DNA of 64,000 nucleotides, taken from positions 1 to 64,000 of the forward strand of contig CAIKHO010000078.1 of assembly GCA_903827245.1 (NCBI GenBank), read 5' to 3'. The position numbers and the translations under genes were made by a program. Source of the DNA: an uncultured Opitutia bacterium. Its GTDB lineage: Bacteria > Verrucomicrobiota > Verrucomicrobiia > Opitutales > Opitutaceae. Positions 40,507-62,697 of this stretch are shown one piece after another (position 1 is the stretch's first letter; the number at the start of each line of letters is the position of its first letter). A model generated the notes under the pieces. That model was given only the letters and a program-made list of their open reading frames with translations, made no database searches and was not told the origin of the DNA.

Positions 40507-40612
40507 ATCAGTTTGAAAATGGAGGAGCGGCTTTATGCCGCGAGGGTTGGGTCCGCGGAGCGACACATCGCGGCATAAAGCCGCTCCTACCTCCAATCAT
40601 CGGCAAACTGAT
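40507..40612. repeat. REPIN-like inverted repeat, family A, inside a second inverted repeat
   Basis: The inner element (40521-40594) has arms of the type GGAGCGGCTTTATGCCGCGA around a 24-base loop; the right arm, read on the minus strand, starts GTAGGAGC. Outside it, ATCAGTTTG (40507-40515) and CAAACTGAT (40604-40612) form another inverted pair. A related copy is at 53157-53224. It lies in the 288-base gap between the M48 gene and the methyltransferase gene; I see no gene in the rest of the gap. Confidence 0.9.
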
Positions 40613-40758
40613 CCACTGCCGAATCCCTAGAGACACTGGATTCAAGTCAGTCCCCGAGCGATGTCAGGCCGACGTGAACCCCTGCACGTATCCCGAAGAA
40701 AATTGATGACGCCTCGCCGATTGGGCGGCAGACTCACCTTGAAAATGAAACTACCCCC

Positions 40759-41598
40759 ATGCCGAATCAGGACCGGACGTTTTATGCCCTGAAACTGAAG
40801 CGCTTCTTCCTGAGGCGCATTTGCCCCCGGCGACTTCACGGCCGCCTGCCCCGCTCGATCACGACCAATGCCCTGCCGGGCTCCATTGGCCGGATCCATA
40901 CGTGCGACACGATCCTGACGCGGCCATCGCAGTCGGGGCTCAACGACTATTTGGCGGTGGGTAGGTCCGCGCTGGACAATTGCGCCGCCACGCTGGCAGC
41001 CATGAACCGGAATTTCTCGGACATCCAGACCTGCCTCGACCTGCCGTGCGGACACGGGCGGATTCTCCGCTGGCTGCAAAGCCGGATCAATCCGGCAGGC
41101 ATCACCGCCTGCGACATCGACCGCGCCGGGGTCGATTTTTGCCGCGAGGAATTCGGGGTGAAGGGTGTCTACTCCTCGGACGACCTGGACCAGCTGAAAT
41201 TTCCCGACTCCTACGACCTCATCTGGGTCGGCTCCCTGCTGACCCATCTGGACCCCGCGCGCTGCACCGCCTTGCTGCGAAAATTGAGCCCGGCGCTGCG
41301 CCCGGGCGGAGTGCTGGTGTTTACCACCCATGGCGAGAGCTGTTTCACGCGCCCGGGCCTGCGCGCCTACGGCAAGCCCTTTCGCGCCGCAGCCGATCGC
41401 ATGAAGGCGGATTTTCAGCGCGAGGGATACTGCTACGCGCCCTACGACGACACGGGTTATTACGGCATTACGCTGCACTCCGAGGACTACATTAAAAAAC
41501 ACGTGACCACCGACGTCTCGGACCGCCTGCAACTGGTGCGCTATCAGGCGCGCGGCTGGCACGACCATCAGGACGTGTGGTCGTTCCGCATGACATAG
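40759..41598 (+). CDS. Class I SAM-dependent methyltransferase
   Basis: The 279-residue product has the Rossmann-type motif I (CLDLPCGHGRILRWLQ, about residue 92), motif II acid (ITACDIDRAG) and motif IV (YDLIWVGSLLTHLDPARC), followed by the usual LSPALRPGGVLVFTTHGES. These are typical of small-molecule or protein methyltransferases of the Methyltransf_11/25 type; the substrate is not evident. The N-terminal 60 residues are basic and unlike the core. It stands alone, with a repeat upstream and a 155-base gap downstream that holds nothing I recognise. Confidence 0.88.
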   Translation: MPNQDRTFYALKLKRFFLRRICPRRLHGRLPRSITTNALPGSIGRIHTCDTILTRPSQSGLNDYLAVGRSALDNCAATLAAMNRNFSDIQTCLDLPCGHGRILRWLQSRINPAGITACDIDRAGVDFCREEFGVKGVYSSDDLDQLKFPDSYDLIWVGSLLTHLDPARCTALLRKLSPALRPGGVLVFTTHGESCFTRPGLRAYGKPFRAAADRMKADFQREGYCYAPYDDTGYYGITLHSEDYIKKHVTTDVSDRLQLVRYQARGWHDHQDVWSFRMT

Positions 41599-41753
41599 CC
41601 TGTGCGCTCGAAATTTGCATCCGCCGGGTTCGCAACGCCCAGGGCCCAATGCAGCCAGCCGCACTTGCAACAATCGGAGCCTTGATGAAACTCATATGCA
41701 GGAACCGGCGTCACGTTCTGCAATCTGTTCCTTAACGTTAACCCCCTCCTTCC

Positions 41754-43172
41754 ATGTCGCATGATCATCACCACTGTTGTGGAGTTTCGACCAACATTGA
41801 GGACTATTTTCTGACGCGCCGCCAGTTCCTGAACCGGGTCGGCTTGGGACTCGGGGCCCTCGGTCTGGCCACACTGCTGCCCTCCGATCTGCTCGCCGCA
41901 CCGGCGGCAACCGCCCTGAATCCTCTCGCTCCGCGACTTCCTCCCCTGCCCGGCAAGGCCAAGTCGGTCATCCATATCTTTGCCCAGGGGGCACCTTCCC
42001 ACGTCGACACTTGGGATCCGAAGCCGGCCCTCTCCCGCATGGACGGCAAGACGCTGCCCGACGGCGGCATCGCCATGGGCTCGCCGTTCAAGTTCACCAA
42101 GATGGGCCAGAGCGGGACCGAGGTCTGCGAGCTCTTCCCGAATCTTGGCCAGCACATCGACGACATGGCGGTGATCCGCTCGATGTACACCGACATTCCC
42201 GCGCACGATGTGGCCACGGTCTTCATGAACACCGGCTCGCTGCGCATCCCGAAGCCCAGCATGGGCTCGTGGGTGATCTACGGACTCGGCACCGAAAATC
42301 AAAACCTGCCCGGTTTCATCTCCCTCCGTAGCGGCGGTCTCCCGCCCGGGGGCGCGGCCAACTACCAGGCCGCCTTCCTCCCGGGCGTTTATCAGGGCTC
42401 ATCCGTCAATACCCAGGCGCAATCGGTCCAGCAGATGATCCAGAACATCCGCAACCAATACCTCGCCCCGGCCGAGCAGCGCCGGCAGATCAACTTTGTC
42501 CACCAGCTCGACGAGATCCAGGCCCACAATCTCGCGAACGAGGCCGCGCTCGAGACCCGCCTCAACTCCTACGAGGTCGCCTTCCGCATGCAGGCCGAGT
42601 CAACCGACGTCTTCGATATCTCCAAGGAGCCCGAGTCCGTCCGCGCCGCCTACGGCAACACCCCGCAGGGCAAGCAACTCCTCATCGCCCGCCGCCTCGT
42701 CGAGCGCGGCGTGCGCTTCGTGCAGGCGTGGCACGACGGCTGGGACCACCATGACAAGCTCCAGGAGCGCATCACCGTGAAGGCCGGCGAAATCGACAAG
42801 CCCCTCGCGGCCCTCATGACCGACCTGAAGCAGCGCGGGCTGCTCGACTCCACCCTCGTCATCTGGGGCGGCGAATTCGGCCGTAAACCGACCAAGGATC
42901 GCAACGGCTACGACGAGCCCGGCCGCGACCACAACAACAAGGCCTTCTGCACCTGGATGGCCGGCGGCGGCGTCAAGGGCGGCATTGTCCACGGCGCCAC
43001 CGATGAATTCGGCGCCGAGGCGATCAAGGACAAGGTCCACGTGCACGACCTGCACGCTACCATCCTGCAGTGCCTCGGCTTCGACCACACCAAGCTCACC
43101 TATCGCTTCAACGGCCGCGACTTCCGCCTGACCGACGTGGCCGGCAACGTCGTGCAGCCCCTTCTGGCATGA
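41754..43172 (+). CDS. DUF1501 protein with Tat signal
   Basis: The 472-residue product has a twin-arginine signal (TRRQFLNRVGLGLGALGLAT, about residues 21-40) and the DUF1501 sulfatase-like fold: SVIHIFAQGAPSHVDTWDPK, MSPF..KMGQSGTEVCELFP-like positions, and DSTLVIWGGEFGRKP with TRGRDHN-like GRDHNNKAFCTWMAGGGVKG. Members are abundant in Planctomycetes and Verrucomicrobia, usually beside a cytochrome-c/DUF1549/DUF1553 protein, as here. The stop overlaps the next start as ATGA. The exact reaction is unknown; the partner set is thought to act on polymers such as sulfated polysaccharides. Confidence 0.93.
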   Translation: MSHDHHHCCGVSTNIEDYFLTRRQFLNRVGLGLGALGLATLLPSDLLAAPAATALNPLAPRLPPLPGKAKSVIHIFAQGAPSHVDTWDPKPALSRMDGKTLPDGGIAMGSPFKFTKMGQSGTEVCELFPNLGQHIDDMAVIRSMYTDIPAHDVATVFMNTGSLRIPKPSMGSWVIYGLGTENQNLPGFISLRSGGLPPGGAANYQAAFLPGVYQGSSVNTQAQSVQQMIQNIRNQYLAPAEQRRQINFVHQLDEIQAHNLANEAALETRLNSYEVAFRMQAESTDVFDISKEPESVRAAYGNTPQGKQLLIARRLVERGVRFVQAWHDGWDHHDKLQERITVKAGEIDKPLAALMTDLKQRGLLDSTLVIWGGEFGRKPTKDRNGYDEPGRDHNNKAFCTWMAGGGVKGGIVHGATDEFGAEAIKDKVHVHDLHATILQCLGFDHTKLTYRFNGRDFRLTDVAGNVVQPLLA

Positions 43173-45817
43173 ACCCTTCACATATCGGACATCATTCCGG
43201 TGAGCGTCCGTCTCATGCATTTGATGGAGACGCGACCTCCCGGTCGCGCTCCGACAGCGACCGGGAGGTCGCTGCTCCAGCGATTGCCCTCCGCGCACTT
43301 CTCTCCGTGCTCGCGTTCGGCGCGTTCGCCGCCTCCGCGCATGCCGCCGCCACCCCGGCCGTCATCTCCCCGGCCGACCTCCAGTTTTTCGAAAACAAGA
43401 TCCGCCCGGTACTGGCCGAGCATTGCTACAAGTGCCACGGCCGCGATGCCGACAAGGTCAAGGGCGGCCTCATGCTCGACACCCAGGAGGGCCTGGTCCA
43501 CGGCGGCAACTCGGGCGCGGTGATCGTTGCCGGCAAGCCCGACGACAGCATTCTCATTCAGGCCGTCCGCTACACCGATCCCGACCTGCAGATGCCGCCC
43601 AAGGGGGAAAAGCTCTCCGACCAGCAGGTCGCCGACCTCACCGAGTGGGTCCGGCGCGGCGCGCCCGATCCGCGCACGCTCGAGGCCAAGGGCAGCGCGG
43701 CCACCTACGGCGGCGTCGGACGCCAGCACTGGTCCTTCCTGCCGGTGAAAAAATCCCCCGCGCCGGTCGTGAAGGACGCCGCCTGGTGCCAGACCCCCGT
43801 GGATAATTTCATCCTCGATAAACTCGAGGCCAGCAACATGGCCCCCAACCCGCCCGCGGACAAACGCACGCTGATCCGCCGCGTCACCTTTGACCTCGTC
43901 GGCCTGCCCCCATCCGAGGAGGAAGTGCAGGCCTTCCTCGCGGACAAGTCCCCGGACGCCTTCGCCACCGTCGTCGACCGCCTGCTGGCCTCGCCCCACT
44001 ACGGCGAACGCTGGGGTCGCTACTGGATGGATGTCGCCCGCTACGCCGACACCAAGGGCGAGCCGCCCAAGATCATGGGCCGTCCCGCCGACCCGCGTTA
44101 TCCCGATGCCTGGACCTACCGCGACTACGTCATCAACGCCTTCAACCAGGACAAGCCCTTCAACCAGTTCATCCTCGAACAACTCGCGGCGGACCGCCTG
44201 ATCGAGGAGAATGCGAAGAAGACCAAGACCGACATCGCCAAGATGGACGGCAGCTCGCGCGCCGCGCTCGGCTTTCTCACCCTGGGCAACCGCTTCGACG
44301 GCCGCATGGATGACATCATCAACGACCGCATCGACGTCACGTCGAAGGCCTTCCTGGGCCTGACGGTCTCCTGCGCCCGCTGCCACGACCACAAGTTCGA
44401 TCCCATCCCGCAGAAGGACTATTACTCACTCTACGGCATTTTCGCCAACACGTACGAACCCGAGGAGATCGGCCAGGAACCGTGGATCCGTTCCTCCCTG
44501 CCCAAGACGCCCGAATTGCTCGATTACCTCGCGAAAACGGACGAGCTGAAGAAGAAGGAGGCGGCCGCGCTTCAGGATTTCCGGGCTTTCGTGCAGACTC
44601 GCATTGTCGACAAGCCAAAACGCAATGAGCTGCTGAGGAAAATCCAGGAGGTCGAGCGAGAGGTCAGCGACCTCGAGACCACCCACCCCGGCGCCCCTGC
44701 GCGGGCCAACGCCATTTTCGACGCCCGTATGCCCCACGATTATCCCGTGCTGATCCGCGGCGAGGCCGCCAACAAGGGTGAGGTCGTGCCCCGGCGCTTC
44801 CTCGACATCCTTTCGGCCGATCCGAAAAAACGCCCGGAATACCGCACCGGCAGCGGACGCCTCGAACTCGCCGAGGCCATCGCCAGCACGGCCAATCCCA
44901 TGACGGCCCGCGTCCTCGTGAATCGTCTCTGGCAGCAGCATTTTGGCGAGGGCTTCGTCGCCACGCCCGACGACCTGGGCAACATGTCGTCGCCGCCCAC
45001 CCATCCCGAGCTGCTGGATTATCTGGCCGCGCGTTTCATGGAGGAGGGCTGGTCGATCAAGAAGATGCAGCGCCTCATCGTGCTGAGCAGCGTTTATCAG
45101 GAAAGCGCCGCGGCCAACCCGCTGTACACCGACACCGACCCGGACAACAAGCTGCACTGGCGGTACAACCTGCGCCGGCTCGATTTCGAGCAGCTGCACG
45201 ATTCCCTGCTGGCCATGGCCGGCACCCTGGACCCGACGATGGGCGGCCGCCCCGTGCGCATCGAAAGCGCCGACTTCGCCACGCGCCGCGCCGTCTACGC
45301 CTACATCGATCGCACGAACCCGGCCGAGATCCTGACCCAGTTCGATTTCCCCAATCCCAGCGTCCCCTCCGGCCGGCGTTACCTGACCATCGTGCCGCAG
45401 CAGTCCCTCTTCATGATGAACGGCACCCTCGTCATCGAAACCGCCCGCAAGCTCACCCACCGGCCGGAATTCCTCGAGTCCGGGACTGACGACGAGCGCG
45501 TCACCTCGCTCTACCTCGCGATTTTCCAGCGTCCCCCGACCCGGCAGGAAATCACAATCTCCGAGCGCTACGTGCAGAACAATCCCGGCGGCACGTCCAC
45601 CGAGGCTCCCGCCAGTACGCGCGCCTCCGAGCTTCAGTCCCAGCAGGCCCAGCGCCAGATCCAGCAGGCGCAGCGCGCCGCGCAAAACATCCGCGGCAAA
45701 AATGTCTTCCAGGGCGAGCCCGGCGCCGCCGCCTTCACCAGCCGCGCCCCGCTCGACGCCTGGACCAAGCTCGCCCACGCCCTCTTCCAGACCAACGAGG
45801 CGATGTTCTACGACTGA
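43169..45817 (+). CDS. Cytochrome c/DUF1549/DUF1553 (PSD1-type) secreted protein
   Basis: The 882-residue product begins with an ATG overlapping the DUF1501 stop. Residues 19-38 are coded by a palindromic repeat (43224-43281); the signal helix (ALLSVLAFGAFAASAHA) follows. Then come a planctomycete cytochrome-c domain with heme motif CYKCH near residue 90, DUF1549 (FILDKLEASNMAPNPPADKR; YGERWGRYWMDVARYADTKG; a further CARCHDHKFDPI) and DUF1553 (NPMTARVLVNRLWQQHFGEG; LIVLSSVYQES). The C-terminal part is Gln/Ala-rich. It is translationally coupled to the DUF1501 gene, so both probably act in one periplasmic pathway. An unextended start further in has no good codon. Confidence 0.92.
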   Translation: MNPSHIGHHSGERPSHAFDGDATSRSRSDSDREVAAPAIALRALLSVLAFGAFAASAHAAATPAVISPADLQFFENKIRPVLAEHCYKCHGRDADKVKGGLMLDTQEGLVHGGNSGAVIVAGKPDDSILIQAVRYTDPDLQMPPKGEKLSDQQVADLTEWVRRGAPDPRTLEAKGSAATYGGVGRQHWSFLPVKKSPAPVVKDAAWCQTPVDNFILDKLEASNMAPNPPADKRTLIRRVTFDLVGLPPSEEEVQAFLADKSPDAFATVVDRLLASPHYGERWGRYWMDVARYADTKGEPPKIMGRPADPRYPDAWTYRDYVINAFNQDKPFNQFILEQLAADRLIEENAKKTKTDIAKMDGSSRAALGFLTLGNRFDGRMDDIINDRIDVTSKAFLGLTVSCARCHDHKFDPIPQKDYYSLYGIFANTYEPEEIGQEPWIRSSLPKTPELLDYLAKTDELKKKEAAALQDFRAFVQTRIVDKPKRNELLRKIQEVEREVSDLETTHPGAPARANAIFDARMPHDYPVLIRGEAANKGEVVPRRFLDILSADPKKRPEYRTGSGRLELAEAIASTANPMTARVLVNRLWQQHFGEGFVATPDDLGNMSSPPTHPELLDYLAARFMEEGWSIKKMQRLIVLSSVYQESAAANPLYTDTDPDNKLHWRYNLRRLDFEQLHDSLLAMAGTLDPTMGGRPVRIESADFATRRAVYAYIDRTNPAEILTQFDFPNPSVPSGRRYLTIVPQQSLFMMNGTLVIETARKLTHRPEFLESGTDDERVTSLYLAIFQRPPTRQEITISERYVQNNPGGTSTEAPASTRASELQSQQAQRQIQQAQRAAQNIRGKNVFQGEPGAAAFTSRAPLDAWTKLAHALFQTNEAMFYD
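43224..43281. repeat. Inverted repeat, family D, inside a coding region
   Basis: GCGACCTCCCGGTCGC (43232-43247) and GCGACCGGGAGGTCGC (43257-43272) form a perfect 16-bp stem flanked by GGAG and CTCC. Related sequences occur at 49827-49855 and 58886-58938. This copy is read in frame as residues 19-38 of the PSD1-type protein. Confidence 0.9.
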
Positions 45818-45927
45818 GGGGGATTGATTCGAGTCGAGAGTCCGGGGCTGAGAGTCGAGAGCCGGAAATCGGTCGTGAAAGAATCAGCCTGAAAACAGCG
45901 GGAGTTTTGCTCGCCTTGCTCTCGACT

Positions 45928-47226
<1,299 letters not shown>

Positions 47227-47302
47227 TGCTCGAAGTTGAGAGGGCCGGCCCAGCCACGTCAAAGCGTTTGCATACACGGCCGGGATTACCGCAGCCTGCG
47301 AG

Positions 47303-48193: not shown

Positions 48194-48403
48194 ATGCGTC
48201 TCGCAGGGGCGTTCCTCGTGGACGCCCGGATCGGTTTCATCCTTCTTCTTGTCGGAGACTGCCTGCAGTCGATGAGCGTAGCGAAACGGCTTCTCGTTCC
48301 GCGGTGGAGCCGGAAGCGGCTCCCCTATGAATCGCCTGCAAGCAGGCTCCTGCAAGAAATGAGCCCCATCACCCTTCTTTCCCCAATCCGTCAGGCCTTC
48401 CCC
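48194..48403. repeat. Decayed repeat stretch between the NERD and DUF1080 genes
   Basis: Position 48208 on reads AGGGGCGTTCCTCGTGGACG, a half-copy of family B. From 48251 to 48353, GGAGACTGCCTGCAGTCGAT and ATCGCCTGCAAGCAGGCTCC form an imperfect inverted repeat like that at 60775-60841. Inside it, GGAGCC/GGCTCC (48306-48323) makes a small hairpin. The reading frame is open through this region by chance. Confidence 0.75.
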
Positions 48404-49159: not shown

Positions 49160-49162
49160 GTC

Positions 49163-49256
49163 GGTGGAACGCGTTGACCCCAACGCGTTGAAAGTCGCCG
49201 CCCGCGTCTGACTGCTGACGGAGCCAACCAGCGCGTTGAGGTCAACGCGCTCCACC
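49163..49256. repeat. Inverted repeat, family C (GGTGGAACGCGTTG)
   Basis: GGTGGAACGCGTTGACCCCA at 49163 pairs with the right arm ending GGTCAACGCGCTCCACC at 49256, around a loop of about 38 bases. A better-preserved copy stands at 58852-59024. It fills the gap between the DUF1080 gene and the nadR-type gene, so it may end both transcripts; its 3' end runs into the last codons of the minus-strand gene. Confidence 0.88.
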
Positions 49257-49805: not shown

Positions 49806-49826
49806 GGTTCGACTGGCCTCATGGAT

Positions 49827-49933
49827 GGGTGGGAGACGCGACGTCCCCGTCGCGTTGCCCGAATGTAGGGGCGTTCCTTGCGGACGCCCGGTTTGATGGC
49901 GGGGAGAAGGGCGTCCGCAAGGAACGCCCCTAC
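49827..49933. repeat. Family D half-element next to a perfect 24-bp inverted repeat (family B)
   Basis: First comes GGAGACGCGACGTCCCCGTC (49828), one arm of family D. Then GTAGGGGCGTTCCTTGCGGA (24-base arm, 49865-49888) pairs without a mismatch with the arm at 49910-49933, around a 21-base loop. Both ends are GTAG/CTAC. The block lies between pnuC and the nadR-type gene and would form a strong hairpin in their mRNA. Confidence 0.93.
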
Positions 49934-50613: not shown

Positions 50614-50649
50614 TTGGCCAGGACCTTCGCCGGAATGATGCAGTCGCCA

Positions 50650-50719
50650 GTAGCAGCCGACGTGAGGAGGCTGGTTTGAGGTGAGTCGCCCAACCCAGCC
50701 TCGTTACCTCGGCTGCTAC
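50650..50719. repeat. REPIN-like inverted repeat, family E (GTAGCAGCCGA)
   Basis: Left arm GTAGCAGCCGACGTGAGGAG pairs imperfectly with the right arm ending CCTCGGCTGCTAC. A second copy with the same arms is at 60668-60738. Both ends show GTAG/CTAC. It lies between the hslO gene and the duplicated hslO tail. Confidence 0.9.
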
Positions 50720-50804
50720 ATCGATCGCTGTGGTTCAATTGCATGGCTCAGCCCAATTCGGCATCACCAATTCCAAATTACCCGCACGGTGACGTGCGTC
50801 GCCC

Positions 50805-51611: not shown

Positions 51612-52004
51612 GCCATAAGGTTGCCACGTTTGCCCCAAAGTAAAGCGACCCACCGGCATCCCACGTAAGGGCGCCCCTTGCGTGCGCCCTGCCTTTGCCA
51701 CCCGCGAACCCCGGATTTTTAGCCACAAAAAGGCACAAGATGACACTAAACCAATCCCGGCATTCCGACCTCATCAATGCCACCGATCCGTTTTACAAAA
51801 GGTCACAAAGGAAACGAAGGACAAGGCAGACGGGAATATCTTCGTTGCCTCCGTTCCCTTCTGTAAAAATGCCTACGGATCAGGATCCCTTTCGTGTCAT
51901 GTCGCGCCTCTCCTGTCCGCCGTAACTTGGCGAAGGAGGATTGTGGCAAAAAATCCGCAATCGATTTGTTGTCGGATTTCCACCCCCGGCGGCGATGACA
52001 AGGC
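51612..52004. repeat. Nested repeat block between hslO and the truncated sigma gene
   Basis: No gene is present. GTAAGGGCGCCCCTTGCGTG (51665) is a half-copy of family B. Outer arms of family F run from 51714 (GGATTTTTAGCCACAAAAAG) to a right arm at 51890-51956 (TTCGTGTCAT...GTGGCAAAAAATCC). Between them lies another inverted repeat (TTTTACAAAAGG at 51791 to CTTCTGTAAAAA ending 51869). The right outer arm is itself split by a hairpin, TCCTGTCCGCC...GGCGAAGGAGGA (51910-51941). Confidence 0.85.
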
Positions 52005-52380: not shown

Positions 52381-52448
52381 GTAGATCCGCCGCTTGACGG
52401 CGCCCTCCGGAGGCGAGCGAACCCGGGCGTCGTCAAGCAACGCCCCTA
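52381..52448. repeat. REPIN-like inverted repeat, family B variant, at the sigma break
   Basis: GTAGATCCGCCGCTTGACGG (left) pairs imperfectly with the right arm GGGCGTCGTCAAGCAACGCC, which ends CTAC. The right arm is nearly identical to that at 61621-61645. It begins two bases after the stop of the truncated sigma gene. Confidence 0.85.
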
Positions 52449-52453
52449 CGACA

Positions 52454-53156: not shown

Positions 53157-53224
53157 GTAGGAGCGGCTTTACGCCGCGATGATCGGGCCGGCGTGGCACA
53201 CCATCGCGTCGTAAACCCGCGCTC
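53157..53224. repeat. REPIN-like inverted repeat, family A
   Basis: GTAGGAGCGGCTTTACGCCG starts at 53157 and pairs imperfectly with the right arm ATCGCGTCGTAAACCCGCGC ending near 53224. The left arm differs at one base from the copy at 40521-40594. It lies in the divergent gap between msrA and the S4-domain gene. Confidence 0.88.
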
Positions 53225-53250
53225 AAGGCCGATGAGGCCAAAGGCCACGA

Positions 53251-53347
53251 AATTTTTGCCACGAAAAGGCACCACATGACACAAAAAGAGATGCATTCAG
53301 GAAGGTTTGTTTTCGTGTCATTTCGTGCCTTTTCGTGGCAAAAAATC
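53251..53347. repeat. Inverted repeat, family F (TTTTTGCCACGAAAAGGCAC)
   Basis: AATTTTTGCCACGAAAAGGC (53251) and the right arm TTTCGTGCCTTTTCGTGGCA (from 53321) form a long stem of about 35 bases, with a 30-base centre. The same arms recur at 51714 and 51890. Its right end holds a GTG that could be read as the start of the next gene. Confidence 0.9.
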
Positions 53348-53355
53348 CGATTCCC

Positions 53356-53742
53356 GTGACCGCTCCCTCCACCAACGACTGCCGGCTGGACAAATGGCTC
53401 TGGAGCGTACGCGTGTTCAAGACCCGCCCCGAGGCGACGGACGCCTGCCGGGCCGGCAAGGTCCTGGTCGACACCCTCGAGGCCAAGCCGGGCCGCGACG
53501 TTCACGTGGGCGAGATCGTCAGCGTCAAGGTCGGCCTCGTGCAGCGCACGCTCAAGGTCCTCGGCCTGCCACGCACCCGGGTCGGAGCCAAGCTGCTGTC
53601 CGAATTCCTGGAGGATCTCACACCCGCAGCGGAGTACGAGCGCGCCAAGCAGGCCGGCCTCGAGCACATGCTCGCCCGCGAACGCGGCCGCCCGACGAAA
53701 AAGGACCGCCGGGACATGTCGCAGCTCTTCGGGTTCGAATGA
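53356..53742 (+). CDS. hslR: S4-domain RNA-binding protein, Hsp15 type
   Basis: Hsp15 binds 50S subunits carrying stalled nascent chains. From GTG at 53356 the product has 128 residues with an N-terminal S4 domain (CRLDKWLWSVRVFKTRPEAT, DACRAGKVLVD) and a basic C-terminus (RERGRPTKKDRRDMSQLFGF), both as in E. coli HslR (133). The frame also begins at a GTG at 53335 (MAKNPIPV...), but that codon lies within the family-F repeat, so I prefer the later start. No strong ribosome binding site is visible for either. Confidence 0.85.
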   Translation: MTAPSTNDCRLDKWLWSVRVFKTRPEATDACRAGKVLVDTLEAKPGRDVHVGEIVSVKVGLVQRTLKVLGLPRTRVGAKLLSEFLEDLTPAAEYERAKQAGLEHMLARERGRPTKKDRRDMSQLFGFE

Positions 53743-53754
53743 GGAGCCACCTCT

Positions 53755-53840
53755 ACTCGGATCGACCTCGGCTCCCCTCCTGTGCAACGGATCGGGATCG
53801 GAAGCTTTACAGGAGGCAATCCGAGGGAGAACCAAGGACG
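53755..53840 (+). repeat. Dispersed repeat, family G (copy 1)
   Basis: This block (CTCGGATCGACCTCGGCTCC ... GATCGGAAGCTTTACAGGAG ... AATCCGAGGGAGAACC) recurs in the same orientation at 61473-61570. Pieces of the left part (CTCGGATCG, CCTCGG) appear in inverse form in the right part but in a changed order, so it folds only in part. Confidence 0.82.
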
Positions 53841-53878
53841 GAAAAAGCCCGTATTTTCGCACTCCATCGGAATTTTTG

Positions 53879-53946
53879 GCCACTGATTACACAGATGGGC
53901 ACAAATTAATCCGGTCTTTATCTGTGCCATCTGTGTAATCAGTGGC
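53879..53946. repeat. Inverted repeat (CACTGATTACACAGAT)
   Basis: GCCACTGATTACACAGATGG at 53879 pairs with CATCTGTGTAATCAGTGGC ending at 53946, with a loop of about 20 bases. It lies between the S4-domain gene and the end of ettA, and could act as a two-way terminator. Confidence 0.9.
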
Positions 53947-53995
53947 AAACAAGGATCGGGATCGATCCGGCAGATTAGGGAAAGGTCAACCCGCC

Positions 53996-55681: not shown

Positions 55682-56218
55682 GCGAGCCACTCAAGCGGAC
55701 GCCGACCACGCCGCAAGCCCATCGTGCCTCATTTCCAATCAAGTTTCACGCAGAGGCGCCATGGCGCGGAGCGGGATCGGGAAATTGATCCTCCTAAACT
55801 CCGCCGTCCAATTTGAACCACGGAGACGCAAAGCGCACAGAGCAGAAATTTTATGGAGCAGATCGGCCGACGGGGCTTTCATCTGCGTGATGAACACGCT
55901 TTTGTCCCTTTTGCCGGCTTTGCCTCTGTGCTCTCAGTGCCTTTGTGGTTCAACCGCGGATTTTAGGTTGAATTCTTCTTGAGACAAAGAACTCGGCAGC
56001 CCGGAAATATTCGCTCCGCACCCCATTCACCCAGTCTCCCTGGTCTGCTCAGCGCCTCCGCGCCTCTGCGCGAAACCCTTCCCCTTCTTTCAAACCCCCG
56101 CCTTGCCTCCAACCCATCCTCCCCGCAACTTTCCCCTTGGCTTACCTGTCCCCCGCCTGTCCGCCCTAGCTTCAGCGACGGCGGCTCCCCCTGTCTCCCG
56201 TTTACTGTCTACCGTCCC
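55682..56218. repeat. Nested repeat block in the ettA-araF divergent gap
   Basis: The 537-base gap has no gene. Outer arms TTTCACGCAGAGGCGCCATG (55744) and GCGCCTCCGCGCCTCTGCGC (ending about 56075) are inverted to each other. They enclose another pair, TTGAACCACGGAGACGCAAA (55814) and CTCTCAGTGCCTTTGTGGTT (ending 55953). The promoters of both flanking genes must be here, but I find no clear -35/-10 pair. No AraC-type site is recognised. Confidence 0.8.
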
Positions 56219-57232
56219 ATGAAATCCCTCCCCCGCTGCTCCCGCTTCGCCACGCTTGCCGGCCTCGGCCTGATCACGCTGGCCTCGCTCCTCACCCCCG
56301 CCGCCGTCGCGGCCGACCAGCCAGTCAAGATCGGCTTCGTCGTGAAGCAGCCCGAGGAGCCCTGGTTTGTGCTCGAGTGGAAATTCGCCGGCCAGGCCGC
56401 GAAGGATCTCGGTTTCACCCTCATCAAGATCGGCGCGACCGACGGCGACAAGGTCCTCAGCGCGATCGACAACCTCGCCGCCAACGGCGCGCAGGGCTTC
56501 GTCATCTGCACGCCCGACACCCGACTCGGGCCGGGCATCGTCGCCAAGGCCAAGTCGGACAACCTCAAGCTCATCACCGTCGACGACCAGCTCATCGGCG
56601 CCGACGGCAAGCCGATGCTCGCCGTCCACCATCTCGGCATCTCCGCCACCAAGATCGGCCAGAAGGTCGGGGCCACCCTCATCGAGCAGATGAAGCAGCG
56701 CGGCTGGGTCGCCGCCGACACCGCCGTCTGCGCCGTGACGTTCGAGGAACTTGCCACCGCCAAGGAGCGTACCGACGGCGCCATCGACGCCATCCTCGCC
56801 TCCGGTTTCGCCAAGGACCGCATCTACAAGGCGCCGCAGCGCACAAGCGACATTCCCGGCGCCTTCGACGCCGTTACAATCCTGCTCACCCAGAAGCCCA
56901 ACGTGAAGCACTGGCTGATCTGCGGCATGAACGATAGCGCCGTGCTCGGCGCCGTGCGCGCGATCGAGCAGCGTGGCTTCACGGCCGACAGCTGCGTCGG
57001 CGTCGGCATCAACGGCACCGACTGCATCGCCGAACTTGAGCGGACCACGCCGACCTCCTTCTACGGCTCCATGCTCAACTCGGCCAAGGCCCACGGCTAC
57101 CAGACGGCCGAGATGATGTTTCACTGGATCAAGGACGGCAAGGAACCGCCCCTCGACACCCGCACGGTCAGCGTGCTGATCACCCGCGACAACTTCCGCC
57201 AGGTGCTCAAGGAGCAGGGTATTCGGGACTGA
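56219..57232 (+). CDS. araF: L-arabinose-binding periplasmic protein
   Basis: Substrate-binding part of the L-arabinose ABC transporter. The 337-residue product has a signal peptide (FATLAGLGLITLASLLTPAA, cleaved near AVAA) and then aligns closely with E. coli AraF: IGFVVKQPEEPWFVLEWKFA, AANGAQGFVICTPDTRLGPG, DDQLIGADGKPM, QRTSDIPGAFDAV, KHWLICGMNDSAVLGAVRAI. The sugar-contact residues visible in these motifs (K, E, D, N, R) agree. The start at 56219 is the only Met before the signal. It is the first gene of araFGH; araG follows after a 72-base repeat. Confidence 0.95.
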   Translation: MKSLPRCSRFATLAGLGLITLASLLTPAAVAADQPVKIGFVVKQPEEPWFVLEWKFAGQAAKDLGFTLIKIGATDGDKVLSAIDNLAANGAQGFVICTPDTRLGPGIVAKAKSDNLKLITVDDQLIGADGKPMLAVHHLGISATKIGQKVGATLIEQMKQRGWVAADTAVCAVTFEELATAKERTDGAIDAILASGFAKDRIYKAPQRTSDIPGAFDAVTILLTQKPNVKHWLICGMNDSAVLGAVRAIEQRGFTADSCVGVGINGTDCIAELERTTPTSFYGSMLNSAKAHGYQTAEMMFHWIKDGKEPPLDTRTVSVLITRDNFRQVLKEQGIRD

Positions 57233-57233
57233 G

Positions 57234-57291
57234 GTAGAGGCGCACCTTGCGTGCGCCCTCCGATCCGGGCGTCCGCCAGGAACGCCCCTAA
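57234..57291. repeat. REPIN-like inverted repeat, family B, between araF and araG
   Basis: GTAGAGGCGCACCTTGCGTG (left) pairs imperfectly with GTCCGCCAGGAACGCCCCTA (right). It starts two bases after the araF stop and ends 13 bases before the araG start, so it must be part of the operon mRNA. Confidence 0.88.
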
Positions 57292-57304
57292 GATTCGATC
57301 CGCC

Positions 57305-58810
57305 ATGACCGCCCCCTGCCTAGCGTTCCACCGCGTCTCGATGGAATTCCCCGGCGTCAAGGCGCTGGACGACGTCTCCTTCGGCGTGTCCGCGGGCTCG
57401 GTCCACGCCCTGATGGGCGAGAACGGCGCCGGCAAGTCCACCTTGCTCAAGATCCTCAGCGGCGCCTACACCCCGTCCGGCGGCTCACTCCTGATCGACG
57501 GCCAGCCGCGCGTCTTCACCTCCACGGCCGACGCCCTCGCCGCAGGCGTCGCCGTGATCTACCAGGAGCTGCATCTGGTGCCCGAGATGAGCGTCGCAGA
57601 GAACCTTTTCCTTGGACACCTGCCCCAGCGCCTTGGTGTCGTGAACCGGGCCGCCCTCGCCGAGGCCGCGCGCCGGCAGCTCGAACTCATTGGCGAATCG
57701 ATCGACCCATGGACCAAGGTCGGCCGCCTCCCCCTCGCCCAGCGGCAGATGGTCGAGATCGCCAAGGCGCTCACGCGCGGCGCTCGCATCATCGCCTTCG
57801 ATGAGCCCACCAGCAGCCTCTCCGACCGCGAGGTGCGCCGTCTCTTCGGCATCATCCGCGAGCTCAAGGCCCGCGGCTGCGCCATCCTCTACGTCTCGCA
57901 CCGCATGGAGGAAATCTTCGAGCTCTGCGACCACCTCACCATCCTGCGCGACGGCCGGCACGTCGAGTCGGCCGGCCTGGCCTCGTTCACCCGCGACCGC
58001 GTCGTCCAGCGCATGGTCGGCCGCGAACTCGCCAATATTTACAACTACACTCCGCGCCCGCGCGCCGGCTCGGGTCTGGCCGTCAAGGGCCTCGCCGGCC
58101 CCGGCCTCGCCGCGCCCTGCTCGTTCTCAGCGGAGGCCGGCGAGATTTTCGGCTTCTTTGGCCTCGTCGGCGCCGGCCGAAGCGAGCTGTTGCGGCTCAT
58201 CTACGGCGCCGCCTTGAAAACCGCCGGCAGCGTGTCCGTCGCCGGCCGAACCGTCGCCATCACCTCCCCGCGCGAGGCCATCCGCGCCGGCATCGTGCTC
58301 TGTCCCGAGGACCGCAAAAAGGAGGGCATCGTCCCCGTCCGTTCCGTCCTCGAAAACACCAACCTCAGCGCCCGCCGCCGGCACGCGCGCGGCGGCATCC
58401 TCATCGACGAGGCGTGGGAACATGCCAACGCCACCCGTCGTACCGAGCAGCTGCGCGTGAAGACGCCCTCGCTGCGCCAGCTCATCCGCAACCTCTCCGG
58501 CGGCAACCAGCAGAAGGTCATCCTCGGCCGCTGGCTGTCCGAGACCGTGAAGGTCATCCTGCTCGACGAGCCCACCCGCGGCATCGACATCGGCGCCAAG
58601 AGCGAGATCTACGCCATCATGCAGGACCTCGCCCGGCAGGGGGTGTGCGTGATCGTCGTCTCGAGCGAACTGCCCGAGGTGCTCGGCGTGGCCGACCGCA
58701 TCGCCGTCATGCGCCAGGGCTGCATTGCCGCCATCCTTGACCGCGCCGACGCCACCGAGGAAAAGCTCCTCAAGCTCGCCCTCCCCGTCGAAACCGCCCG
58801 CGCGAGCTGA
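57305..58810 (+). CDS. araG: L-arabinose import ATP-binding protein
   Basis: Double-cassette ATPase of the CUT2 class. The 501-residue product has the first cassette with GENGAGKSTLLKILSG, AVIYQELHLVPEMSVAENLF, PLAQRQMVEIAKALTRGARI and DEPTSSLSDREV, and the second with FFGLVGAGRSELLRLIYGAA, NLSGGNQQKVILGRWLSETV and DEPTRGIDIGAKSEIYAIMQ; the second Walker A lacks the Lys (GAGRSE), as is usual in this class. The start MTAPCLAFHRVSMEFPGVKA was chosen since upstream codons are in the repeat. It sits between araF and araH. Confidence 0.95.
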   Translation: MTAPCLAFHRVSMEFPGVKALDDVSFGVSAGSVHALMGENGAGKSTLLKILSGAYTPSGGSLLIDGQPRVFTSTADALAAGVAVIYQELHLVPEMSVAENLFLGHLPQRLGVVNRAALAEAARRQLELIGESIDPWTKVGRLPLAQRQMVEIAKALTRGARIIAFDEPTSSLSDREVRRLFGIIRELKARGCAILYVSHRMEEIFELCDHLTILRDGRHVESAGLASFTRDRVVQRMVGRELANIYNYTPRPRAGSGLAVKGLAGPGLAAPCSFSAEAGEIFGFFGLVGAGRSELLRLIYGAALKTAGSVSVAGRTVAITSPREAIRAGIVLCPEDRKKEGIVPVRSVLENTNLSARRRHARGGILIDEAWEHANATRRTEQLRVKTPSLRQLIRNLSGGNQQKVILGRWLSETVKVILLDEPTRGIDIGAKSEIYAIMQDLARQGVCVIVVSSELPEVLGVADRIAVMRQGCIAAILDRADATEEKLLKLALPVETARAS

Positions 58811-58851
58811 CTGCCATGGCTCATCTCATTTCCCTCTTCGCGTCGGTTCCG

Positions 58852-59024
58852 AGGTGGAACGCGTTGTCCTCAACGCGTTGGTTCGGTAGGAGCCGCGACA
58901 TCCCTGTCGCGCTCGGCGATCGGGAGGCCGCCGCTCCAGCTCGATCCCAGACTGTAGGGCGGATCGAAGACCTGACCTGCTCATACCGCGCCCAACAACG
59001 CGTTGGGGACAACGCGTTCCACCT
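58852..59024. repeat. Inverted repeat of family C with a family-D element inside, between araG and araH
   Basis: AGGTGGAACGCGTTGTCCTC (arm 58852-58880) and the arm at 58996-59024 (ACAACGCGTTCCACCT end) match at 28 of 29 bases. Between them stands a family-D element, GTAGGAGCCGCGACATCCCT to CCGCCGCTCC (58886-58938). The whole lies within the 281-base gap between araG and araH; no gene is seen there. Confidence 0.92.
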
Positions 59025-59091
59025 GGCTCTCGTTCATCCGGCGATAAACCGACGCCTTTGCTAGTTCACCCGCGCTCTCTCGCTCTTCTTC

Positions 59092-60093
59092 ATGGCTTCA
59101 GCCCCCTCCCCTTCCCGCAAGGCTCTCGCCACCTTCCTCGACAAGGCCGGCATGCTGGTCGTGCTCGCGATCCTGTTCGTCGCCTGCTCGTTCTACGTCG
59201 ATAATTTTTTCTCGTGGGCGAACATGCGCGGCCTCGCCCTCGCCGTCTCGATGACCGGCATGGTCGCGTGCACCATGCTGTTCTGCCTGGCCGCCGGCGA
59301 TTTCGATCTCTCCATCGGCTCCGTCGTCGCCTGCGCAGGCGTGCTGGCCGCCGTGGTAATGAACCAGACCGACAGCATCACCCTCGGCGTGCTCGCCGGC
59401 CTCGGCGCCGGCGCGCTCGTCGGCTTCGTCAACGGCTACGTCGTCGCCCGCCTGCGGATCAACGCCCTGATCACCACGCTGGCGACGATGCAGATCGTCC
59501 GCGGCCTCGGCTACCTCGTCTCCAACGGCATCGCGGTCGGCATCCAGCGCGAGGGATTCTTCTCCCTCGGCAACTCCATGTTCCCCGGCCGCGAATTTTC
59601 GATTTTCGGCACGACCTTCCGCGGCGTGCCCACGCCGGTGCTGATCACCGCCGGGTGCTTCATCCTGTTCGGCTTCATCCTGAACCGGACCGTGTTCGGG
59701 CGCGACACCCTCGCGGTCGGCGGCAACCCCGAGGCCGCCCACCTCGCCGGCATCGCCGTCGACCGCATCAAGATCATCATCTTCACCGCCCAGGGCATGA
59801 TGGCCGCGTTCGCCGGCATCGTGCTCGCCTCGCGCGTGACGAGCGGCCAGCCCAAGACCTCCGAGGGCTTCGAGCTGGAGGTCATCTCCGCATGCGTGCT
59901 CGGCGGCGTGTCGCTCACCGGCGGCGTCGGCAGCATGGCCTTCGTGATCGCCGGCGTGCTCATCATGGGCATCGTGCAGAACGCGATGAACCTGCTGAAC
60001 GTACCCACGTTCTACCAGTACGTCGCCCGCGGCGCGATCTTGCTGGCGGCGGTACTTTTCGATCGCTGGAAACGCCGCAAGGGTGCGGGGTGA
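59092..60093 (+). CDS. araH: L-arabinose transport permease
   Basis: CUT2-class permease of the arabinose importer. The 333-residue product has about 9 hydrophobic helices and the family segments LAAGDFDLSIGSVVACAGVL, ALVGFVNGYVVARLRINALI, NALITTLATMQIVRGLGYL, FGRDTLAVGGNPEAAHLAGI and ISACVLGGVSLTGGVGSMAF. Length is close to E. coli AraH (328). It follows araG after a repeat-filled gap, so it may need its own ribosome loading or be expressed at a lower level than araF. No araBAD genes or AraC/AraR regulator are in the window. Confidence 0.94.
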   Translation: MASAPSPSRKALATFLDKAGMLVVLAILFVACSFYVDNFFSWANMRGLALAVSMTGMVACTMLFCLAAGDFDLSIGSVVACAGVLAAVVMNQTDSITLGVLAGLGAGALVGFVNGYVVARLRINALITTLATMQIVRGLGYLVSNGIAVGIQREGFFSLGNSMFPGREFSIFGTTFRGVPTPVLITAGCFILFGFILNRTVFGRDTLAVGGNPEAAHLAGIAVDRIKIIIFTAQGMMAAFAGIVLASRVTSGQPKTSEGFELEVISACVLGGVSLTGGVGSMAFVIAGVLIMGIVQNAMNLLNVPTFYQYVARGAILLAAVLFDRWKRRKGAG

Positions 60094-60104
60094 GGTAGGG
60101 CCAT

Positions 60105-60310
60105 AGTTGGTAGTTCGTAATCGGTAGTTCGTAATCGGTAGTTGGGAATTGGGAATTGGGCCGGGGCTGAATGTTGGGCTTTGCGTTTGTAGTCCCGGCT
60201 TCAGTCGGAATCCGGAACCGGCTAAAGTCGGGACTACAAACGGAAAATCGTAAAAATGTACCCCTGCCCCAATTCCTAATTCCCAACTACCAATTACGAA
60301 CCACCAACTT
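60105..60310. repeat. Nested inverted repeat after araH
   Basis: Outer arms: AGTTGGTAGTTCGTAATCGG (60105; the unit GTAGTTCGTAATCG is doubled) and CTACCAATTACGAACCACCA (ending near 60310). Inside, GTAGTCCCGGCTTCAGTCGG (60189) pairs with the right arm GGCTAAAGTCGGGACTAC ending 60237; both ends are GTAG/CTAC. No gene is seen in this 216-base gap. Confidence 0.9.
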
Positions 60311-60579
60311 CACGCACCCTGCCTTGGCGCCGCCGTCACCCGTTCCAGCTCCGCCAGAAATCCCATCGCCTCCTCCCGGTTCGCACCGCACATGGCGTCG
60401 TTCGGCCGCAGACTCCTGCAGACCGCCGGCCGCTCCAGCCGGCCGAACAGCGCGCACCGGTAATCCGGCAGCAGTTGCACGCACGGGATCCCCGCCGGCT
60501 TGCCGTGGGGCATGCCGGGAATCGGCGACGAGATCGAGGGCGCGATGCAGCACGCGCCACAGCCGGGACGGCATTCCAC
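60310..60579 (-). CDS. YkgJ-type cysteine-cluster protein
   Basis: The 89-residue product, from GTG at 60579, begins MECRPGCGACCIAPSISSPI and contains eight cysteines, including the CxxxCxxCC-like cluster, LPDYRCALFGRLERPAVCRS and the end NDAMCGANREEAMGFLAELE. It matches the short YkgJ/UPF0153 proteins thought to bind zinc or iron. The frame is open far upstream, but that part is repeat DNA with no family match. The function is unproven. The stop lies beside the end of the nested repeat. Confidence 0.85.
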   Translation of the reverse strand: MECRPGCGACCIAPSISSPIPGMPHGKPAGIPCVQLLPDYRCALFGRLERPAVCRSLRPNDAMCGANREEAMGFLAELERVTAAPRQGA

Positions 60580-60991
60580 GCAACGGAATTTAACCACGAA
60601 GGGCACGAAGTACACGAAAGATGAGGCGCCGCCCTCACAGAGCCTGAGCGGACTCACGCACATGCATGTAGCAGCCGAGGTAACGAGGCTGGCTTGGGCC
60701 GAGCACCTCAAGCCAGCCTCGTTACCTCGGCCACTGCAGACCCGAGCCGTTTTAGCGGCGTGATCCCGGCTGGGGTAGGAGCCTGCTTGGAGGCGATTGC
60801 CGCGGATCACGTCGCTCATCGCCTGCAAGCAGGCTCCTGCCAACAAATGACTCCATTTTTCGTGTCCTAGGTGCCTTTCGTGCTGAAGTCCGCCCGCATG
60901 AATCCGATGAATAACCGGTGATTTTTTACAATATGCAGATTGTTGCACAGTTGCTTTACCTGCACCGGGTTTTTCTCCAACTTGCCAAAAC
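60580..60991. repeat. Repeat block upstream of the thioesterase gene
   Basis: No gene is seen. Outer arms TTTAACCACGAAGGGCACGA (60590) and TAGGTGCCTTTCGTGCTGAA (ending 60885) are related to family F. They enclose a family-E element with well-matched arms (GTAGCAGCCGAGGTAACGAG, 60668-60738) and a family-A2 element (GTAGGAGCCTGCTTGGAGGC paired with GCCTGCAAGCAGGCTCCTGC, 60775-60841). Confidence 0.88.
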
Positions 60992-61453
60992 ATGAAGCCG
61001 GTCAAGGTCCCCGCGTTTGAACTCTTTCTGCACGAGATGATACCCCTCGCGAAGGCGATGGGCGTCGGCGTGGAGGTGAGCGACGACCGTTCCCTGACGC
61101 TGACCGCGCCCAAGGAGCAGAACAAAAATTCCCTCAACACCGCCTTTGGCGGCAGCCTCGTGTCGCTCGCCACCCTCGCCGGCTACGGCGTGGTCTGGGA
61201 GCTGATGAAGAACGAGAAGGGCGCCAACAAGCCCGAATGGCACATCGTCGTGAAGGAAAGCCGCGCGGCCTACCGCCGCCCGGTGATCGGCGACCTGCGC
61301 GCCATCTGCGAACGGCCCGCCCAGGCAGCCATCGCGGAATTCAAGGAAGCCCTCGCCCGCTACGGCAAGGCCAAGCTCAAGCTGCGCGCCCGCGTGATCG
61401 AGGGCGGCCACACCGCCGTCGATGTCACGGCGGCGTTTGTGGTCATCAAATAA
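60992..61453 (+). CDS. Hot-dog fold thioesterase of YiiD C-terminal type
   Basis: The 153-residue product contains QNKNSLNTAFGGSLVSLATL, GYGVVWELMKNEKGANKPEW, HIVVKESRAAYRRPVIGDLR and a C-terminal strand (KLRARVIEGGHTAVDVTAAF). This fits the putative-thioesterase domain of YiiD-like proteins; Asn and Thr in the NSLNTAFGG turn lie where the substrate site is expected. The substrate is not known. It stands alone between repeat blocks. Confidence 0.82.
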   Translation: MKPVKVPAFELFLHEMIPLAKAMGVGVEVSDDRSLTLTAPKEQNKNSLNTAFGGSLVSLATLAGYGVVWELMKNEKGANKPEWHIVVKESRAAYRRPVIGDLRAICERPAQAAIAEFKEALARYGKAKLKLRARVIEGGHTAVDVTAAFVVIK

Positions 61454-61472
61454 GACCCTCGGTTCGATCCAC

Positions 61473-61570
61473 GCTCGGATCGACCTCGGTTTGCCTCCAG
61501 TGCAAAACGGATTGGGTCGGTATCGGAACCGGAAATTTTACAGGAGACGATCCGAGGGCAGGCCGAGGAC
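61473..61570 (+). repeat. Dispersed repeat, family G (copy 2)
   Basis: Same order and orientation as the block at 53755-53840: CTCGGATCGACCTCGGTTTG, GGTATCGGAACCGGAAATTT, then TACAGGAGACGATCCGAGGG. It has a few insertions relative to copy 1. It lies in the gap after the thioesterase gene. Confidence 0.82.
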
Positions 61571-61579
61571 GTATTCTTC

Positions 61580-61645
61580 GTAGGGGCACTCGTTGCGGGC
61601 GCTCTCCGAAGACCCAACCCGGGCGTCGTCGAGCAACGCCCCTAC
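61580..61645. repeat. REPIN-like inverted repeat, family B, overlapping a stop codon
   Basis: GTAGGGGCACTCGTTGCGGG (left) pairs with GGGCGTCGTCGAGCAACGCC, ending CTAC. The TAG of the terminal GTAG on the minus strand (61642-61644) is the stop codon of the beta-hydroxylase gene. Confidence 0.9.
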
Positions 61646-62421
61646 CGGCCCCGCAGCTTCTGCGCCTCGGCATAGAACTCCTTCTCCCATTTCGTCTGGT
61701 TGTCCTGCGCCTCGCGGATGAACGACGTGAACACCGCCGCGCGCAGGATGAATTGATTCAGCACGTTGAAGGGAAACCACACCGGACGCACAAAATCCAC
61801 AAAGAGCACGACGCGCCAGCCGTCCGTGTCGTTCCACACCTCGTGGTCGTAGCTGTCGTCGAACAGCAGGCACTTGCCCTCCTCCCACGTGCAGATCTGG
61901 TCGTCGACCCGGATCCGTACCCGCTCGCGCGGCTCCGGCACGATCAGGCCGAGATGCAGGCGTAGGACACCGTTGTAGGGTCCGCGGTGCGCGGGGATGT
62001 GCTTGCGCGGTGCGAGGATCGAGAAAAACCCGGTCTTCATCCCGGGGATTTTCTTCAGCGCGGCGACCGTCGCGGGACACCGGCGGCAGTTCTCCTCGCT
62101 CCATGAGCCGTAACCGCAGAAAATGAAGGTCTTCCAGTTGTTGTCCGTCTGGATGGTCTTCACCTCGCTCGAGATGTCCTGGAAGTTCGGGAGCTCGTCG
62201 CGCCGCTTCATCACCTGGTCCAGTTCCGCTCGGATCGCCGGCCAGTCGGCCTCCACCGCGGCCGTCCAGGGAAAGTCCGCCCGGGAGTAAACCGGCTTGT
62301 CACCGACGCGGGAAAATTTCGCGAGGCACCATTCCGCCGCGTCGAGAAACGTCGCGATGGCGTTGCCGGCAAATCCGGTCGGGGGTTTGAGGGGTTTGCC
62401 TTGGACTTTGCCGCGGGCCAT
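61642..62421 (-). CDS. Aspartyl/asparaginyl beta-hydroxylase family protein
   Basis: Fe(II)/2-oxoglutarate-dependent oxygenase. The 259-residue product has the iron-binding and oxoglutarate-binding segments: KHIPAHRGPYNGVLRLHLGL (first His), WEEGKCLLFDDSYDHEVWND (second His) and TDGWRVVLFVDFVRPVWFP. The family also includes LpxO-type lipid A hydroxylases, which have a similar length, so a lipid substrate is possible. The protein ends KLRGR, its stop supplied by a repeat. A short hydrophobic stretch near FPFNVLNQFILRAAVF may bind the membrane. Confidence 0.9.
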   Translation of the reverse strand: MARGKVQGKPLKPPTGFAGNAIATFLDAAEWCLAKFSRVGDKPVYSRADFPWTAAVEADWPAIRAELDQVMKRRDELPNFQDISSEVKTIQTDNNWKTFIFCGYGSWSEENCRRCPATVAALKKIPGMKTGFFSILAPRKHIPAHRGPYNGVLRLHLGLIVPEPRERVRIRVDDQICTWEEGKCLLFDDSYDHEVWNDTDGWRVVLFVDFVRPVWFPFNVLNQFILRAAVFTSFIREAQDNQTKWEKEFYAEAQKLRGR

Positions 62422-62697
62422 GAGAGTTCCGGCGAACCGCCCGGGGCCCGCCGCAGGAATCAGGGTTGTGGTTTATCCGGCCATTTCGGACAGGGGGTTG
62501 GGCCGGACTTTATCTCTGAAATATCCAAACGCGCGTTAAGCAACCCTGAATCGGAGATCGCCACGAAATACCCCAAAGACACGAAAAGAATACCAACGAC
62601 GCCCTCGCTGCTTCCAACCTGCCATCCACGCCACTTCCGAAATGGATCGAAACTCCGATTTCGTGTGCTTCGTGTTTTTCGTGGTTAAAAATCCGAC
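62422..62697. repeat. Repeat-containing gap before the NTP hydrolase gene
   Basis: No gene is seen. Arms CGCCACGAAATACCCCAAAG (62559) and TCGTGTTTTTCGTGGTTAAA (ending 62694) form an imperfect inverted repeat related to family F. Confidence 0.75.

What the first reader, a model, noticed from the sequence alone, without database searches (positions are those of the whole stretch)
40507..62697. A dense, multi-family set of GTAG-ended REPIN-like palindromes confined to the accessory half
At least seven recurrent inverted-repeat families fill the gaps from 40.5 to 62.7 kb: A (GGAGCGGCTTTATGCC), A2 (GAGCCTGCTT), B (GGGGCGTTCCTTGCGG), C (GGTGGAACGCGTTG), D (GGAGACGCGACNTCCC), E (GTAGCAGCCGA) and F (CCACGAAAAGGCAC). 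Many start GTAG and end CTAC, the mark of REP elements moved by RAYT-type single-strand transposases in other phyla. No element of this size is seen in the 40 kb before. So many unlike families in 22 kb suggest several mobilising enzymes or rapid drift.
Basis: partly seen in the sequence, partly recalled or inferred. Interest (0 to 1): 0.8.

Follow-up and report, generated by a model that had tools for sequence, protein, structure and literature searches.

The report
Orphan REP palindromes, one MITE-borne
The palindromes are real small mobile repeats: for most of them the copying enzyme was found only in relatives and not in this genome, and one family has spread inside a different kind of mini-transposon.

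Summary
The palindromes are real. 27 monomers matching seven patterns (A, A2, B, C, D, E, G) lie at 40.5-61.7 kb and none in the first 40 kb. Family A has 140 copies genome-wide, against 0 for the reversed pattern. GTAG/GTGG-tagged REPs of this type are already published as abundant in Opitutus terrae (PMC3733652).

No Y1/RAYT gene was found in this draft genome, even at E<=10. In related genomes, RAYT genes are flanked on both sides by the window's own families: A at 2 loci, A2 at 2, B at 1, C at 1. These look like REPIN populations whose RAYTs were lost here.

Family E differs. It mostly sits in a ~123-bp MITE with terminal repeats CCGGAACGATGCAGTYG and a CTNAG target at both ends; N agrees in 18 of 24 units, 6.8 expected. 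The same ends bound an IS1380-family element elsewhere and occur in many MAGs titled Verrucomicrobiota. No IS1380 gene was found here.

D and G have no RAYT partner yet. F is an unexplained CAC-nonamer repeat, not a REP. New variant of a known kind.

The parts
40521..40590 (.). Family A REPIN; left tag mutated to GGAG, right tag GTAG
43226..43278 (.). Family D inverted dimer, overlapping predicted ORFs
48203..48353 (.). Degenerate B monomer (48203-48227), a doubtful A2 monomer (48251-48273, 4 mismatches) and an A2 monomer (48331-48353)
49163..49256 (.). Family C REPIN (GTGG tag)
49832..49854 (+). Family D monomer
49865..49933 (.). Family B REPIN
50625..50751 (+). Family E unit: MITE with left end CTTCG-CCGGAATGATGCA and damaged right end at CTCAG (50747-50751), carrying the E REPIN 50650-50719
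52425..52449 (-). Degenerate B monomer
53157..53220 (.). Family A monomer with a degenerate partner
57267..57291 (-). Degenerate B monomer
58853..59023 (.). Family C arms with a D element (58889-58940) between them
60112..60309 (.). H arms around a family G REPIN (60189-60237)
60644..60774 (.). Second E REPIN (60668-60737) in a unit with a variant, weaker pair of MITE ends (CTGAG 60644-60648, CTGGG 60770-60774)
   Evidence: read; end matches 2 and 4 mismatches
60775..60840 (.). Family A2 REPIN
61580..61645 (.). B-like inverted dimer

Best explanation
Families A, A2, B and C are REPINs: two GTRG-tagged hairpins in inverted order, spread by single-strand HuH/Y1 RAYT enzymes that recognise tag and hairpin. 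Relatives still carry RAYT genes flanked by the same arms; here no RAYT is found, so these REPINs are orphans. D and G look alike but their enzyme is not known. E is a REPIN held inside a MITE with IS1380-type ends; in this genome it spread mainly as that MITE, into CTNAG sites, using a transposase supplied in trans and no longer present. Shown: tags, dimers, copy numbers, RAYT flanking in relatives, MITE ends with matching targets, an IS1380 element with the same ends. Inferred: the action of the enzymes, their loss from this lineage, and how E entered the MITE.
For: Family A 140 copies, reversed pattern 0. No PF01797 match here at E<=10, against 89 of 100 family genomes with one. Both-sided flanking of RAYTs by A (L153, L164), A2 (L143, L163), B (L051), C (L053) and R1 (L052) among 106 Y1 loci; flank repeats >=13 nt at 28 of 79 family Y1 loci against 23 of 1000 random places. 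Nine of 11 tested proteins pass the RAYT model NF047646. E: MITE ends 93 matches against 8 for the reversed pattern; N of CTNAG equal in 18 of 24 units, 6.8 expected; 11 of 15 unselected E loci have an arm; same ends on IS1380 L277 and beside an IS1380 remnant in L344.
Against: The genome is a 91-contig draft with masked stretches. Two of the 11 tested proteins (L053, partner of C, and L164, partner of A) fall below the NF047646 cut-off. Of 15 unselected E loci only 5 have both arms at <=3 mismatches and 4 have none. L277's own flanks disagree (CTAAG/CTTAG). No IS1380 gene here. Only 1 of 73 MITE pairs in named genomes holds the E core.
Confidence: 0.72

Rival explanations
1. A RAYT is present in this organism but was missed: too diverged for PF01797, in a masked or unassembled stretch, or on an unbinned element. 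The REPINs are then still mobilised in the ordinary way.
For: Draft of 91 contigs, 97.38% complete; some stretches masked; congener RAYTs score near the cut-off.
Against: 0 first-look candidates at E<=10, while the same search finds genes in both congeners; another genome of the family, G214 (one contig), also has 24 copies of A and 0 Y1 matches.
Confidence: 0.15
2. E was always spread by a RAYT; the MITE arms are only a favoured landing site into which E REPINs inserted many times.
For: REPs inside longer palindromes are on record for Anabaena variabilis (PMC3733652 section 7); bare E REPINs exist (0 of 4 G224 loci have arms); nested palindromes are common in this window.
Against: Units keep one length (131-133 including both CTNAG, 24 of 24) and one junction sequence; targets agree at both ends; no RAYT with E arms among 106 Y1 loci, E-rich G211 and G224 included.
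Confidence: 0.1
3. The palindromes are not mobile but conserved structural or RNA elements (terminators, mRNA ends).
For: They lie mostly between genes and would fold as hairpins; such roles are proposed for REPs in the abstract of PMC3733652.
Against: Few positions are shared with congener G177; RAYTs carry the same arms; E has matching target sequences at its ends.
Confidence: 0.03

Closest known systems
GTAG-tagged REP families, including those of Opitutus terrae (Di Nocera et al. 2013, PMC3733652)
   Same: GTAG or GTGG tag, short hairpin, inverted dimers, several families in one genome; the tag-GA-hairpin layout of A and A2 fits the paper's description of GTAG-1 (passages).
   Different: The paper reports REPtrons in most GTAG hosts; here no RAYT is found. 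I saw abstract, passages and section 7, not Figure 1, so I could not match families to its numbers.
Orphan REPs after RAYT loss (Nunvar et al. 2013, PMC3686654)
   Same: REP classes without a RAYT in the strain but with one in relatives, explained by loss of the gene (passages).
   Different: Here all RAYTs seem gone and at least four families are orphaned at once.
MITEs of the IS1380 family
   Same: E's outer ends equal those of an IS1380 element (L277, NF033539 at 209.5 bits, cut-off 180).
   Different: The interior is a GTAG REPIN, and no IS1380 gene is found in the host.
TIRtrons (PMC3733652)
   Same: Nine of the longer Y1 genes in the family are flanked by GGGGTCA-type inverted repeats, like the paper's GGGGWSAS consensus.
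   Different: None of the window's families A-G is of that type.

Membership tests
REP/REPIN (GTAG superfamily): A, A2, B, C, D, G | GTRG tag next to a short hairpin | tested here: met
   A, A2, B, G read GTAG; C reads GTGG; D mostly GGAG, one copy GTAG (58886-58911). For D this is only partly met.
REP/REPIN (GTAG superfamily): A, A2, B, C, D, G | Inverted dimers, many copies in the genome | tested here: met
   Dimers. Whole-genome copy number was counted for A only (140); the others were counted in an 18-stretch sample.
REP/REPIN mobilised by RAYT | RAYT gene flanked by the same REP | tested here: met
   Met in relatives for A, A2, B, C. Not found for D, E, G among 106 Y1 loci.
REP/REPIN mobilised by RAYT | RAYT gene in the same genome | tested here: not met
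IS1380-type MITE: E | Terminal inverted repeats shared with an autonomous element | tested here: met
   Ends; IS1380 element L277 with the same ends.
IS1380-type MITE: E | Target duplication | tested here: met
   N of CTNAG equal in 18 of 24 units, 6.8 expected; 43 of 50 in named genomes.
IS1380-type MITE: E | Transposase source in the same genome | tested here: not met
   NF033539: 0 matches here at E<=0.001.
Mobility itself | Observed movement | not testable with these tools
   Only indirect: changed positions against G177 and a site without E there.

The most novel reading that the evidence does not exclude
E is a two-mobiliser chimera: a REPIN that escaped dependence on its RAYT by being captured between IS1380 ends, then spread as a MITE through genomes of several genera, and that could seed new bare REPIN populations wherever a fitting RAYT is present.
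Probability: 0.45. Interest if true: 0.65.

Novelty: new variant of a known kind. Interest (0 to 1): 0.48.

Why it matters
It gives a natural comparison for a standing question: how long REPIN populations last once their RAYT is gone, since related genomes carry the same families with and without the matching gene. It also shows that a palindrome running GTAG..CTAC need not have been moved by a RAYT: E was mostly carried by a MITE of the DDE-transposase kind, so counting such palindromes as signs of RAYT activity can mislead. The end CTNAG-CCGGAACGATGCAGT marks a MITE group found in many draft genomes titled Verrucomicrobiota.

Tried and rejected
IS5/IS1031 as source of E's arms (PF13340): 0 matches in this genome; 3 matches in two other genomes, without these ends (the end scan there used the faulty function described below, so this part is weak). 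L354 as a second autonomous element: its ORF is of the IS110 type, probably nested in a MITE. RAYT partner for D, E, G: none at <=4 mismatches (<=3 for G) in 106 Y1 loci; those loci are a part of all Y1 matches. E junction as an exact pattern in genome contigs: 0. MITE end in viral contigs: 0. Text search for F-type motifs: 475 papers, the 10 listed unrelated.

My own error: the first scan function used regex BESTMATCH, which skips matches lying before the best one, so (E part), 76 and 79 undercount. I redid the counts and cite those; the earlier figure (20 of 33) is superseded. From the faulty calls I use only positive sightings, printed sequence, BLAST results and the separate inverted-repeat parts.
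Full report
OBSERVATION. The inverted repeats named in the finding are at the stated coordinates. The corrected scan counts 27 monomers of A, A2, B, C, D, E and G between 40,521 and 61,645 and none in bases 1-40,000. Reversed patterns over window plus 18 sample stretches gave 0 for A, A2, B and C, 1 for D, 2 for E and 1 for G. In the 18 sample stretches (247.9 kb) the same patterns give A 10, A2 2, B 3, C 6, D 4, E 13, G 2. A pattern-free count of inverted repeats (arms >=12, gap <=130) gives 10 in 40-64 kb (Markov control mean 1.0), 0 in 1-40 kb and 36 in the sample, after I removed the two masked stretches from the printed total; 6 of 18 stretches have none. The first 40 kb include rpoB and rpoC. 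The genes after 43.3 kb keep their order in congener G177, so 'accessory' is too strong.

COPIES. Family A occurs 140 times in this genome at <=3 mismatches, reversed pattern 0; 67 times in congener G177; 0 in G178, which is 72% complete. Among 100 genomes of the family it is found in 40 at <=2 mismatches, unevenly: 198 in G198, 128 here, 73 in G201 (one reversed-pattern hit in all). A and A2 have two unpaired bases between tag and hairpin and a short tail after it, as Di Nocera et al. describe for GTAG-1 (passage).

NO RAYT FOUND HERE, RAYTS IN RELATIVES. PF01797 finds nothing in this genome at E<=0.001 or E<=10. It matches 79 of 177 genomes drawn from the order, 89 of 100 drawn from the family and both congeners. 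The sensitivity is limited: the three congener genes score 26.8-33.9 bits against a cut-off of 23, and the RAYT model NF047646 was not run on the genome. All three congener genes are flanked on both sides by GTRG REPs: L051 by B, L053 by C, L052 by R1, a further family with 3 matches in this genome's sample. In other genera A flanks L153 and L164, and A2 flanks L143 and L163; A-like repeats with changed stems flank L175 and L183. Those nine are all that matched on both sides among the 106 Y1 loci I held. Of 79 family Y1 loci held, 28 have an exact inverted repeat >=13 nt across the gene, against 23 of 1000 random places. Of 11 proteins tested with NF047646 (cut-off 80 bits), nine pass; L053 (69.6) and L164 (65) do not. 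Nine longer Y1 genes are instead flanked by GGGGTCA-type repeats, like the TIRtrons of Di Nocera et al.. G214, a one-contig genome, has 24 copies of A and no Y1 match, so A without RAYT is not unique to this draft.

TURNOVER. The window aligns with G177 in blocks of 74-93% identity from 43,327 on. Of the 23 monomers there, one site (E at 60,668) has a same-family monomer in the matching gap of G177 (L240 16815). A second possible one is a B-like monomer at L240 8550 with 4 mismatches to a B variant, in the gap matching the window's degenerate B at 52,425. G177 has a C dimer where the window has F. At the E unit of 50,625, G177 shows the flanks without the element (by eye).

FAMILY E. A search with the region listed 33 further E places in this genome, conserved beyond the GTAG..CTAC palindrome (truncated list). 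The alignment shows one unit: CTNAG, CCGGAACGATGCAGTCGCCG, the REPIN, a 3' stretch ending TGCATCGTTCCGG, CTNAG. The outer 18-mer has 46+47 matches here against 2+6 for the reversed pattern. In 24 distinct units with both ends at <=5 mismatches the length is 131-133 and N agrees in 18, 6.8 expected from 20,000 shuffles; at <=3 mismatches 14 of 19, 5.6 expected. Of 15 unselected E loci, 11 have at least one arm at <=3 mismatches, 5 have both, 4 none; a random single flank has one in 76 of 3000. In loci picked as best matches from relatives, arms occur at 4 of 5 in G211, 3 of 6 in G177, 6 of 11 in a set from six other genomes (all six hits in G231, G197 and G252), and 0 of 4 in G224, where E is a bare REPIN. 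Copy numbers outside this genome are only first-look candidates (201 in G211, 115 in G224, 43 in G177).

SOURCE OF THE ARMS. Viral contigs: 0. 63 of 119 loci hold a short pair of ends, 73 pairs, most often 200 or 173 bp; N agrees in 43 of 50 clean pairs, shuffled mean 13.4 and maximum 27; one pair (L278) holds the E core. L277 (1465-2963) has these ends around a 465-aa ORF matching IS1380 (NF033539 209.5 bits, cut-off 180; PF13701 118.2 bits), though its own flanks differ (CTAAG, CTTAG). Two contig ends (L317, L335) carry the end followed by the last 23-24 residues of the same protein. An Opitutaceae MAG (L344) has an IS1380 3' remnant just inside the same end. NF033539 was sought in 11 handled genomes: none here, matches below the cut-off in six, one of them (G211, L368) beside an E unit. 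So E is an orphan here too.

OTHER FAMILIES. D and G have no RAYT partner among the 106 loci. L214 and L234 of this genome show the IS1380-type left end followed by a G REPIN (printed), so G may also ride on such elements; not tested. F is built of CAC-centred nonamers in inverted order without the tag. Nesting is common in the window: D within C, G within H, E and A2 within F.

MECHANISM. That RAYTs act on single-stranded tagged hairpins is from recall and from abstracts in search listings (PMC8266576, PMC3116915), not shown here. Loss of RAYT with slow decay of its REPs is the model of Nunvar et al. (PMC3686654, passages) and fits A, A2, B and C. For E, transposition by an IS1380-type transposase in trans is inferred from ends and target sequences.

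NOVELTY. Several GTAG families in one Verrucomicrobia genome are published for O. terrae, orphan REPs for pseudomonads and Stenotrophomonas, and REP dimers inside longer palindromes for A. variabilis (section 7), there without target duplications or a named transposase. I saw no description of a REPIN inside an IS1380 MITE in the listings; the library is open-access only.

Noticed in passing
window 51709-51757, 53248-53349, 53873-53952, 55813-55953, 60589-60619 with 60858-60883, 62557-62690; also L241 and L242 (G178): Family F: inverted repeats made of CAC-centred nonamers (CCACGAAnnnCACGAAnnnCACGAA, also CACTGATnn and CACGGAGnn variants), without a GTRG tag. Origin unexplained.
   Followed up: partly
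window 53756-53840 and 61474-61571: Family I, a repeat starting CTCGGATCGACCTCGG, with relatives in several sample stretches.
   Followed up: no
window 58853-59023, 60112-60309, 60589-60883: Nested palindromes: D inside C, G inside H, E and A2 inside F, as if older palindromes are favoured landing sites.
   Followed up: no
L180 (G254), about 1306-1368 and 1920-2019: A RAYT of this family flanked by GTGGGAGCGAGCTTGCTCGCGA, which as I recall resembles Pseudomonas REPs.
   Followed up: no
L214 and L234 (this genome): IS1380-type left end followed by a family G REPIN: possibly a second REPIN-carrying MITE.
   Followed up: no
G214 (family genome, one contig): 24 copies of family A and no Y1 match: a possible second RAYT-less host.
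   Followed up: no
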